Shown here in pieces: positions 53,836 to 60,755 of a stretch of 64,000 nt of DNA. The stretch is from Deltaproteobacteria bacterium. Its GTDB lineage: Bacteria > Myxococcota_A > UBA9160 > UBA4427. The stretch lies in NCBI GenBank assembly GCA_029261835.1, contig JAJDAO010000039.1, positions 62,001-126,000 of the forward strand, written 5' to 3'. The notes below the pieces were generated by a model that was not told the DNA's origin, did not search any database, and was given only the letters and a program-made list of their open reading frames with translations. The first letter of the stretch is position 1. Every line of letters begins with the position of its first letter. The position numbers and the translations under genes were made by a program.

Positions 53836-54202
53836 GGGGGCGACTTGGCTTCGACGGGTGGTCGAAGGTGAGCGCTGCGTGCCGAGGTCGTCACACTCCT
53901 CGTTAAACAGGTGGCACTGTTGGTAGCTTTATAGATGCCGACGATAACTACGCACTCGCTGCCTAGCTGAAACTGGGTTAGCGACATCCGTCCGTGACGT
54001 CTTCTAGCGGGTCGCGGGTGTCATTAGAAGGCTGGTCTCCGAACGCTTCTCGGCCGTAACCGGAGACGAGACCGACGTCGAGATAGGTCGTGCCCCTCCC
54101 GTCCTCGCGACAGGCACAACCGAATTCGAGCGAGGACTACGCACGTAGACGCGCTGATTGGACACCATGCGGACGCGGGTTCGATTCCCGCCGCCTCCAC
54201 CA
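53836..54202 (+). ncRNA. ssrA: Transfer-messenger RNA
   Basis: 367 nt. The 5' end GGGGGCGACTTGGCTTCGACG and the 3' end GGTTCGATTCCCGCCGCCTC followed by CACCA are classic tmRNA termini; GGGGGCG pairs fully with CGCCTCC to form the acceptor stem. The tag frame starts at the resume codon GCC (53937) and encodes ADDNYALAA followed by TAG (53964-53966), giving the conserved ALAA degradation ending. With SmpB it rescues stalled ribosomes. Its 3' end is duplicated downstream. Confidence 0.97.
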
Positions 54203-56063: not shown

Positions 56064-59214
<3,151 letters not shown>

Positions 59215-59305
59215 CTTCTTCTCCATGTGCGGCGCGGCGATCGCGCCGGGGCCTTGGTCTTCTTGATGGGGCCAATATCGGACTCGATGATCGATCAGTC
59301 CAATT

Positions 59306-59322
59306 GATAATAATTTAGTATC
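59306..59322. promoter_or_regulatory. Candidate OxyR operator between prx-grx and oxyR
   Basis: GATAATAATTTAGTATC has the outer GATA and TATC arms at the same 17-base spacing as the OxyR half motif (GATAG-N7-CTATC), 15 bases before the oxyR ATG. The surrounding 60 bases are strikingly AT-rich. One half-site only is clear; the second is weak. Confidence 0.45.
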
Positions 59323-59337
59323 CGATAACTTTAAGTA

Positions 59338-60225
59338 ATGAATAAGCCAACCTTGAGACAGCTCGAGTACATCGTTGCCGTAGCGGATCACGGCCATTTT
59401 GGTCGAGCGGCGGCCGCCTGTTTCGTGACCCAACCCGCTTTGAGTACGCAGATCCGCCAGCTTGAAAGCCTGGTTGAAGCGCAGATTTTCGAACGGGGTC
59501 GGCGTCAAGTGTTGCAGACAGCTCTCGGTGCCGAATGCGTCGAACGTGCGCGACGCGTGATTCTGCAAGTCGATGAACTCGTCGAGGCGACTCGGGTCGC
59601 CCGTCAGACTCTGACCGGCGATTTGCGCATGGGTGTGATTCCGACGGTGGGTCCGTACTTGCTAGCCCGGGTGTTGCCGGCGGTCCGTCGAAAACACAAA
59701 GGGCTCCGTCCGCTTCTGCGAGAGGACCCGACGGCGAGACTTGTCTCGGAACTCAAGGCGGGTCGGCTCGATGTCTTACTTCTCGCCCTCGAGGCTGATC
59801 TTGGAGACGCCCAAACCCTGCCGCTGTTCCAAGACGACTTCCATGTCGTGATGCCCCGAGGCCATGCGCTCGCGACGAAGAAAAGCGTGCGCGAGTCGGA
59901 TCTCGTTGGTGAGCAGGTCTTGCTTCTCGACGACGGCCATTGACTGCGCAATCAGGCCCTCGCCGTGTGCGGGACAGAAACTGTCAACGAGATTGTGGAT
60001 CTTAGAGCCACGAGTCTCAGCACTTTGACTCAGATGTTGACGAGCACCGGGGCGCTCACGCTGCTCCCCGAACTCTCGTTGCCCGTGGAAACCCGTGGTC
60101 GTCGCGACCTCGTGGTGCGAAGCTTTCGTGCCCCTGCACCTTACCGAACGATCGGCCTCGCTTGGCGGCGAACGAATCCGCGCGCCGCGGAGTACCGGGT
60201 CTTGGCGGAGAGCCTGACGATCTAG
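59338..60225 (+). CDS. oxyR: OxyR, LysR-type peroxide sensor with in-frame TGA at the sensing cysteine
   Basis: A 295-residue LysR regulator if codon 202 (TGA, 59941-59943) is read through. The N-terminal HTH (FGRAAAACFVTQPALSTQIR) and the regulatory domain are OxyR-like. Around the TGA the frame reads LLLDDGH-U-LRNQALAVC, matching E. coli LMLEDGH-C199-LRDQAMGFC208: the TGA is exactly at the H2O2-sensing Cys199, and the second Cys is kept nine residues later (Cys211). The frame continues to the normal end (GALTLLPELSLP, RTIGLAWRR). A SECIS-like hairpin follows. The alternative is a nonsense mutation that silenced the gene; the intact downstream half argues against it. Confidence 0.85.
59941..59973 (+). 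promoter_or_regulatory. SECIS-like hairpin of oxyR
   Basis: After the TGA, C58-C59 pair with G72-G73 (last two digits of 599xx), U60 bulges, C61-G62-C63 pair with G69-C70-G71, and the loop is CGTGT. The G lies 21 bases after the UGA. A bulged U three pairs below a loop carrying G-U is the exact feature set SelB needs in E. coli fdhF. Confidence 0.7.
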
Positions 60226-60755
60226 GAAGTGTCATGGAGCACGGTGAGGGCGCTCCCGGGCGAGCATTGACCTGCCCCAGTCTGTCGTACCAGTCCCTAT
60301 GTTAGTCCAAGCAGCAGTTTCTCTTCCCTCGGCCCGGGCCACTGCACCGTCTCGGGTGCCGGTGGACGGTAGCTCAGCGAGCTGTGGGGCTTCGTCGCCT
60401 ACTACACCAACGAGCGCTACAACGAGTCGCTTGACAATGTGACGCCCGCTGACGTCTACTTCGGAAGGCACTATGCGGTGCTGTCAGAGCGAGCGAAGAT
60501 CAAGCGGCAGACGATGCAGAAACGGAAGAAGGAGTATCTGGCCGAGAAGGCCGCCTAGGAAGGAATCCGAAACCGTCTCTTAGCGCAGAGCATCTCAAGT
60601 CCGAAATACTTCGACGACGTACACAACAAGGCAAAGAGAAAGGTTGAGCCTTGCGTTACCCAGGTGGTAGGGTGCTCTAGGCTTGGGGCGAGATTTCCCG
60701 AGGATCGAGACCTGCGACCGCCGACGGTCGGGGAGAGCCGGAGAGGGGAGTTCGA
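60226..60755. other. Gene-poor stretch after oxyR
   Basis: About 530 bases with one recognisable item, the transposase remnant at 60373-60558. No promoter or RNA gene is evident. GGGGAG about seven bases before the next ATG is the ribosome binding site of the PEP-CTERM gene. Confidence 0.5.
60373..60558 (+). pseudogene. Remnant of an IS3/IS481-type transposase C-terminus
   Basis: An open frame of 61 codons reads VAYYTNERYNESLDNVTPAD and continues with VYFGRHYAVLSERAKIKRQT, the last part of a DDE integrase-core transposase (normally YNNERYHESLxNVTPADVYF). It has a stop just upstream and no catalytic D-D-E part. It marks past insertion activity beside the peroxide cluster. Confidence 0.7.

What the first reader, a model, noticed from the sequence alone, without database searches (positions are those of the whole stretch)
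59338..60225. OxyR with selenocysteine at the peroxide-sensing position
Seen: one continuous OxyR frame is broken only by TGA at codon 202, flanked by DDGH and LRNQALAVC. Known: in E. coli OxyR this site is Cys199 in EDGH-C-LRDQ, the residue oxidised by H2O2, with Cys208 nine residues on; here Cys211 is also nine on. The TGA is followed by a hairpin with a bulged U, three upper pairs and a G-U loop, as in the fdhF SECIS. Inference: a selenol sensor forming a U202-C211 selenenyl-sulfide. I do not recall a described selenocysteine OxyR.
Basis: partly seen in the sequence, partly recalled or inferred. Interest (0 to 1): 0.95.

Follow-up and report, generated by a model that had tools for sequence, protein, structure and literature searches.

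The report
Peroxide-sensing OxyR using selenocysteine
A bacterial gene for the hydrogen-peroxide sensor OxyR carries a UGA codon, predicted to be read as selenocysteine, exactly where ordinary OxyR has its sensing cysteine; the same UGA sits at the same codon in four related genomes, so some bacteria likely wire selenium into a gene-control protein.

Summary
One OxyR frame (59338-60225) is interrupted only by TGA at codon 202, which aligns with Cys199 of E. coli OxyR; Cys211 aligns with Cys208. The genome holds selA, selB, selD (itself with an in-frame TGA) and tRNA-Sec. Four other genomes of the order have the same single TGA at the same codon; 19 of the 25 matches in that search have TGC/TGT there. 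The part behind the TGA is under purifying selection, and synonymous sites just behind it are constrained within each Sec subclade, not across subclades and not in Cys pairs. All five genes lie divergent to a peroxiredoxin gene. Of 120 listed short database homologues 105 end exactly before this codon, so a stop there recurs in about 100 clusters; their DNA was not seen. A quick tree needs at least 5 Sec/Cys switches. Two selenoprotein catalogues (119 and 87 families) list no OxyR. Selenocysteine insertion, the selenenyl-sulfide and faster sensing are untested. Verdict: a real, probably widespread Sec form of OxyR; new variant of a known kind.

The parts
59338..60225 (+). oxyR, predicted selenoprotein, 295 residues with Sec at 202; LysR HTH_1 (res. 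6-64) and LysR_substrate (res. 90-293)
59941..59943 (+). TGA at codon 202, predicted Sec codon at the peroxide-sensing position
59968..59970 (+). TGC, Cys211, aligned with the second (resolving) cysteine of E. coli OxyR
59956..59975 (+). candidate bSECIS hairpin, loop with GU starting 20 nt after the UGA
   Evidence: not diagnostic alone; synonymous constraint within subclades
59295..59307 (+). T-N11-A box TCAGTCCAATTGA between oxyR and the divergent peroxiredoxin gene; predicted OxyR (LysR-type) site
58480..59214 (-). divergent peroxiredoxin-glutaredoxin fusion (Redoxin + Glutaredoxin); start at 59214 or 59226; predicted OxyR target
56064..58289 (-). haem peroxidase (PF00141, two stretches), KatG-like; N-terminus looks like a signal peptide (impression); downstream of the peroxiredoxin gene; predicted same operon or regulon

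Best explanation
The gene encodes OxyR whose sensing cysteine codon is replaced by UGA, which the genome's selenocysteine machinery is predicted to decode as selenocysteine. Shown by the sequence: an OxyR frame intact but for one TGA, at the codon of E. coli Cys199, with Cys211 nine residues on; homologues of selA, selB, selD and a tRNA-Sec gene in the same genome; the same codon in four other genomes; selection on the protein downstream of it. Inferred: SelB delivers Sec-tRNA at this UGA with help of the hairpin behind it; H2O2 oxidises the selenol of U202 to a selenenic acid; Cys211 condenses with it to a selenenyl-sulfide, which switches the regulatory domain as the C199-C208 disulfide does in E. 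coli; the switched protein acts at the T-N11-A box on the divergent peroxiredoxin(-glutaredoxin) gene and perhaps on the peroxidase gene beyond; glutaredoxin likely resets it.
For: TGA at the same codon in 5 of 25 matches found in 97 genomes, 19 with TGC/TGT, 1 with CAT. Machinery in own genome: tRNA-Sec 65.7 bits and ARAGORN tRNA-SeC(tca), selB 304.9 bits with SelB winged-helix domains, beside seryl-tRNA synthetase, selA 507.8 bits, selD 318.8 bits with its own in-frame TGA. The genome also has a peroxiredoxin frame with TPT-TGA. Purifying selection after the TGA: pN/pS 0.31-0.46 in the five Sec pairs compared. Synonymous constraint in codons 203-214: L009/L010 9 of 9 identical codons against 78 of 191 elsewhere (p 0.0004); the three pairs among L011, L012, L014 have 11, 11 and 10 of 12 (p 0.005-0.03); 0 of 15 Cys pairs (six of nine Cys loci loaded) below 0.05. 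105 of 120 listed short homologues end exactly at ..GH. TGA ends 46 of 62 open stretches of 300 codons or more in the window (all six frames, many not genes), so no reassignment is apparent. Divergent peroxiredoxin motif in 5 of 5 Sec and 1 of 24 Cys loci.
Against: No protein-level evidence exists here. The hairpin does not separate Sec from Cys genes, and in the window's own gene it folds at -6.4 kcal/mol, short of the -7.5 of the published bSECIS model. The six Sec pairs across subclades show no synonymous excess, and the 203-214 stretch was chosen after an alignment had been seen. In G061 (78% complete) no tRNA-Sec was found at E<=1e-9 and no selD over cut-off; selB is over cut-off in 3 of the 5 Sec-oxyR genomes, with partial matches starting at the first bases of a contig in the other two. 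The own genome is a 104-contig assembly with 2.05% contamination. For the database proteins other than those of the five genomes, neither the stop codon nor the frame behind it was seen.
Confidence: 0.9

Rival explanations
1. Degenerate oxyR: the TGA is a nonsense mutation (or base-call error) and the second half is decaying; the Cys-type copy elsewhere in the genome does the work.
For: The own genome does hold a second, uninterrupted OxyR with TGC at this codon (L033, 56% identical).
Against: Same TGA at the same codon in four other genomes whose proteins are 55-70% identical to the window's; pN/pS after the TGA 0.31-0.46, before it 0.28-0.42, in five Sec pairs (an uninterrupted Cys pair: 0.56 and 0.38); no other stop in the aligned part of any of the five; the exact end recurs in about 100 protein clusters.
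Confidence: 0.02
2. UGA is read through, but by another amino acid: Cys (a tRNA-Cys or altered tRNA-Sec reading UGA) or Trp by suppression.
For: Cys at this place would give an ordinary OxyR; recoding of UGA to Cys is known in some bacteria (recalled, no call).
Against: selA, selB, selD and tRNA-Sec are present, ARAGORN types the tRNA as tRNA-SeC, selD and a peroxiredoxin carry TGA at positions known for Sec (motifs UxxK and TxxU), and no reassignment of TGA is apparent in the window.
Confidence: 0.04
3. UGA acts mainly as a programmed stop: the 201-residue protein (DNA-binding domain plus half of the regulatory domain) is the working product, for example as a repressor.
For: Gene callers end the protein there (P0020 and relatives); without selenium the UGA should terminate.
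Against: The downstream part stays under purifying selection, which needs a full-length product at least part of the time.
Confidence: 0.04

Closest known systems
OxyR of E. coli and its Cys-type relatives (LysR-type peroxide sensor; PDB 1i69, 1i6a)
   Same: Domain order, the DGH-x-LR-Q motif, second cysteine nine residues on, IPTVGPY and the His before the sensing residue (their roles are recalled)
   Different: TGA in place of the sensing cysteine codon; divergent to a peroxiredoxin(-glutaredoxin) gene
Sec-containing peroxiredoxins and other Sec/Cys paired selenoprotein families (PMC13188914 Table 1)
   Same: Sec alternates with Cys at one redox position; same machinery; the same genome has a TPT-TGA peroxiredoxin
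   Different: No entry there is OxyR or LysR; the only one named as regulatory is a putative regulatory protein of the FmdB family
LysR_Se / HrsM (selenium-specific LysR regulator; PMC9312934 passages; model NF040786)
   Same: LysR-type, linked with selenium
   Different: The passages seen describe a regulator of selenium genes, not a selenoprotein; the window protein scores 92.4 bits against a cut-off of 250 for NF040786
One-cysteine OxyR of Deinococcus radiodurans (PMC2225504, title and abstract start in a listing)
   Same: OxyR with a changed cysteine pair
   Different: There a single cysteine; here the sensing cysteine codon is UGA and the partner cysteine is kept

Membership tests
OxyR (LysR-type peroxide sensor) | LysR HTH plus LysR_substrate domain over the whole length | tested here: met
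   Pfam HTH_1 67.2 bits, LysR_substrate 126.2 bits
OxyR (LysR-type peroxide sensor) | Best named family is OxyR | tested here: met
   PRK11151 OxyR is best of 48 NCBIfam families, but 245.3 bits is under its curated cut-off of 329; best PDB matches are OxyR
OxyR (LysR-type peroxide sensor) | Sensing cysteine in DGH-C-LR | tested here: not met
   TGA at that codon in the window's gene; met only if Sec counts as its chalcogen analogue
OxyR (LysR-type peroxide sensor) | Resolving cysteine nine residues on | tested here: met
   TGC at codon 211; TGC in 5 of 5 Sec genes
OxyR (LysR-type peroxide sensor) | H2O2-dependent activation of defence genes | not testable with these tools
   Only the neighbourhood was seen: peroxiredoxin in 5 of 5 Sec loci, peroxidase in the window, a ferritin-family gene behind the peroxiredoxin in G076
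Bacterial selenoprotein | In-frame TGA with homology on both sides | tested here: met
Bacterial selenoprotein | Cys homologues at the same column | tested here: met
   19 of 25 matches; 116 of the 120 listed proteins (of 5279), the other 4 end before it (whose count of 117 includes the query)
Bacterial selenoprotein | selA, selB, selD, tRNA-Sec in the genome | tested here: met
Bacterial selenoprotein | bSECIS hairpin behind the UGA | tested here: inconclusive
   Present in 5 of 5, but the filter also passes 26 of 39 Cys genes; synonymous constraint supports it within subclades only
Bacterial selenoprotein | Selenium in the protein | not testable with these tools
   none

The most novel reading that the evidence does not exclude
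A widespread class of selenoprotein transcription factors: in many bacterial lineages OxyR senses peroxide with a selenol (U202-C211 selenenyl-sulfide), giving a faster and more easily reset switch, and because its synthesis needs selenium the whole peroxide regulon is gated by selenium supply, the 201-residue stop product acting when selenium is short.
Probability: 0.3. Interest if true: 0.95.

Novelty: new variant of a known kind. Interest (0 to 1): 0.87.

Why it matters
OxyR is the textbook thiol switch. A natural Sec form, interleaved with Cys forms among close relatives, makes a long-standing question directly testable: what Sec adds over Cys in sensing rather than in catalysis. It would put selenium into a DNA-binding regulator; neither catalogue read names one (each has a putative regulatory protein of the FmdB family). 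It also matters for annotation: in the database searched, about 100 clusters of these proteins end at residue 200 or so. A selenol OxyR domain could also serve in peroxide probes such as HyPer, which is built on OxyR (passage).

Tried and rejected
Hairpin as proof of selenocysteine: rejected, since the same filter passes 26 of 39 Cys genes; three further Cys-at-202 loci then held (L030, L065, L067) were left out of that set. Pseudogene and sequencing error: rejected on five genomes and pN/pS. Change of genetic code: not apparent, TGA ends 46 of 62 long open stretches, though many of these are not genes. Machinery as a marker of Sec-OxyR: it is not one, as tRNA-Sec is also found in 7 of the 10 genomes with Cys-OxyR that I gave, against 4 of 5 with Sec-OxyR.

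Tree: quick method, N-terminal part only, 34 of the 35 short proteins ending in GH (the 134-residue one dropped) and 81 of 116 full-length Cys rows (the first 45 and every second one after); 49 of 112 inner branches have support under 80; 13 changes, of which well-supported branches force 5. Rooted at the midpoint for drawing only, so it does not say which state came first.

Breadth: the one genome-contig scan gave 34 loci: 1 with TGA, 17 with TGC/TGT, 12 with other codons, 4 without this column; the TGA one has the same oxyR as G076. The relatives (97 genomes), order (79) and phylum (377) searches overlap and gave the same five TGA genes; only 6 candidates a genome were scored. In one search, 24 of the 25 Cys loci from those searches were given (L030 left out). 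NCBIfam on three frames beside the tRNA-Sec gene found no sel gene there. No structure was predicted: a model cannot hold Sec and the fold is known.

Literature on novelty: nine searches. Seen: PMC13188914 outline, sections 5 and 7 (parts 1-2 of 3) and passages; PMC9312934 section with Table 1 and passages; PMC12013277, PMC2398784, PMC8115020, PMC11639659, PMC8586653 passages; other papers only as listings. Of 96 papers with both OxyR and selenocysteine only 30 were listed. Preprints and most subscription papers are not held, so an earlier report cannot be excluded.

Full report
What is there. The window holds an OxyR frame at 59338-60225 (+), ATG to TAG, with one TGA at codon 202. Pfam finds HTH_1 and LysR_substrate along it and NCBIfam's best family is OxyR, although under that model's cut-off. 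Against the E. coli OxyR chain 1i6a, codon 202 falls on the cysteine of DGHCLRDQ and residue 211 on the next cysteine.

Conservation. A protein search of 97 genomes (own included) gave 25 matches at E<=1e-50; 5 have exactly one stop, a TGA, in all five at column 202: the window, G076 (70% identical), G013 (59%), G004 (58%), G061 (55%). Of the other 20, 19 have TGC or TGT there, including a second OxyR of the window's own genome (L033), and one has CAT and does not look like OxyR at this site. At E<=1e-75 the order search (79 genomes) added nothing and the phylum search (377) six loci, all TGC. A DNA pattern for this motif hits 5 of 377 genomes, the same five, with 0 hits for the pattern read backwards.

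Machinery. The own genome has tRNA-Sec, SelB with its winged-helix domains beside seryl-tRNA synthetase, SelA and SelD, whose gene has its own TGA followed by a hairpin with a GUC loop. A peroxiredoxin frame with TPT-TGA lies on another contig. Among the 5 Sec-oxyR genomes selA is over cut-off in 5, tRNA-Sec in 4, selD in 4, selB in 3 with partial matches at contig starts in the others. tRNA-Sec is also in 7 of 10 genomes with Cys-OxyR, so the machinery permits Sec-OxyR but does not predict it. TGA ends 46 of 62 open stretches of at least 300 codons in the window.

Selection. Nei-Gojobori counts give pN/pS 0.28-0.42 before and 0.31-0.46 after the TGA in five Sec pairs; a Cys pair gives 0.38 and 0.56, and window against own Cys copy 0.43 and 0.51. 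Behind the TGA, codons 203-214 are nearly frozen at synonymous sites in each Sec subclade: 9 of 9 identical against 78 of 191 elsewhere for the window and G076 (p 0.0004), and 11, 11 and 10 of 12 in the three pairs of the other subclade (p 0.005-0.03). The six pairs across subclades show nothing, nor do 15 Cys pairs. A SECIS that differs between subclades would leave this trace; the stretch was, however, picked after an alignment had been seen.

Hairpin. In G076 the 24-nt piece folds as GCCC-U-CGC-(CGUGU)-GCG-GGGC at -12.1 kcal/mol; in G004, G013 and G061 related hairpins fold at -9.8 to -10.0; in the window's gene at -6.4, in a slightly different register. Candidate loops start 20-21 nt behind the UGA and hold GU in all five, inside the published model (spacing 16-37 nt, G then G or U; PMC13188914 section 5), except that -6.4 misses its limit of -7.5. 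Longer pieces do not always fold this way. In this GC-rich DNA 26 of 39 Cys genes pass my filter too, so the hairpin alone proves nothing.

Breadth. Asking the protein database only for short proteins (70-222 residues), one query gave 53 hits, 35 ending exactly at GH; a profile of eleven pieces gave 580 hits, of which 120 are listed; 105 of these end there, 12 hold the Cys and 3 are other. Query pieces ending at GH and the length limit favour such hits, so this is no prevalence, but the exact common end needs a stop codon at the sensing position. Together 103 clusters of at least 190 residues, 40-92% identical in pairs, form 22 groups at 70% identity by single linkage. Some begin like gamma-type OxyR (MNLQDLRYVV; resemblance recalled); one lies on a 4.7 Mb contig. 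Four of them match the contig lengths of G076, G004, G013 and G061. On a quick tree Sec and Cys rows are mixed: 13 changes, at least 5 forced by well-supported branches. For all but the five genomes the stop codon itself was not seen.

Neighbourhood. All five Sec genes are divergent to a peroxiredoxin gene with PGAFTPTC; the motif search (1200 nt upstream, other strand) finds it in 1 of 24 Cys loci. A glutaredoxin domain is fused in 4 of 5; in G076 the peroxiredoxin ends without it and a ferritin-family gene follows. In the window a PF00141 peroxidase follows; no peroxidase turned up among the neighbouring frames that I tested in the other four. TCCAATTGA lies 39-47 nt before the aligned start in 5 of 5 Sec loci and 33-36 nt before it in 3 of 24 Cys loci; with its flank it makes a T-N11-A box in the window, the usual LysR-type form (recalled).

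How it likely works. In E. coli, C199 is oxidised by H2O2, moves and bonds with C208, and glutaredoxin 1 helps reset it (PMC8115020 passages). Here the same path with a selenol is inferred. A table passage in PMC11639659 gives 35.4 for free Sec and 2.9 for free Cys with H2O2, and about 5x10^4 for OxyR (units not in the passage), so a faster sensor is plausible but not shown; the protein context dominates the rate.

Novelty. Table 1 of PMC13188914 (119 families) and of PMC9312934 list no OxyR; term searches inside PMC13188914, PMC12013277 and PMC2398784 find neither OxyR nor LysR. Nine paper searches showed no report of a Sec OxyR among what was listed; not all papers were listed or held. I file it as a new variant of OxyR, which would also be a new selenoprotein family.

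Noticed in passing
G000:C88:55279-55749 (L117): Peroxiredoxin frame with TGA at TPT-U, probably another selenoprotein of the same genome.
   Followed up: partly
G000:C98:20944-21870 (L057): selD with in-frame TGA, itself a predicted selenoprotein, followed by a hairpin with a GUC loop.
   Followed up: yes
G000:C83, L110:6778-7686: Second OxyR of the same genome, Cys type, 56% identical, no divergent peroxiredoxin motif found; a histidine kinase gene lies about 1.7 kb away. Why both are kept is open.
   Followed up: partly
window 60373-60559 (+): Short frame behind oxyR that looks like the tail of an insertion-sequence transposase (impression only; no Pfam match).
   Followed up: partly
window 53836-54202 (+): tmRNA gene, tag ADDNYALAA.
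   Followed up: no
P0245, P0241, P0158, P0159 (protein database): Short OxyR of another type (starts such as MTLQNLRYVV) ending at GH, P0245 on a 4.7 Mb contig: Sec-OxyR may exist far from this phylum.
   Followed up: no
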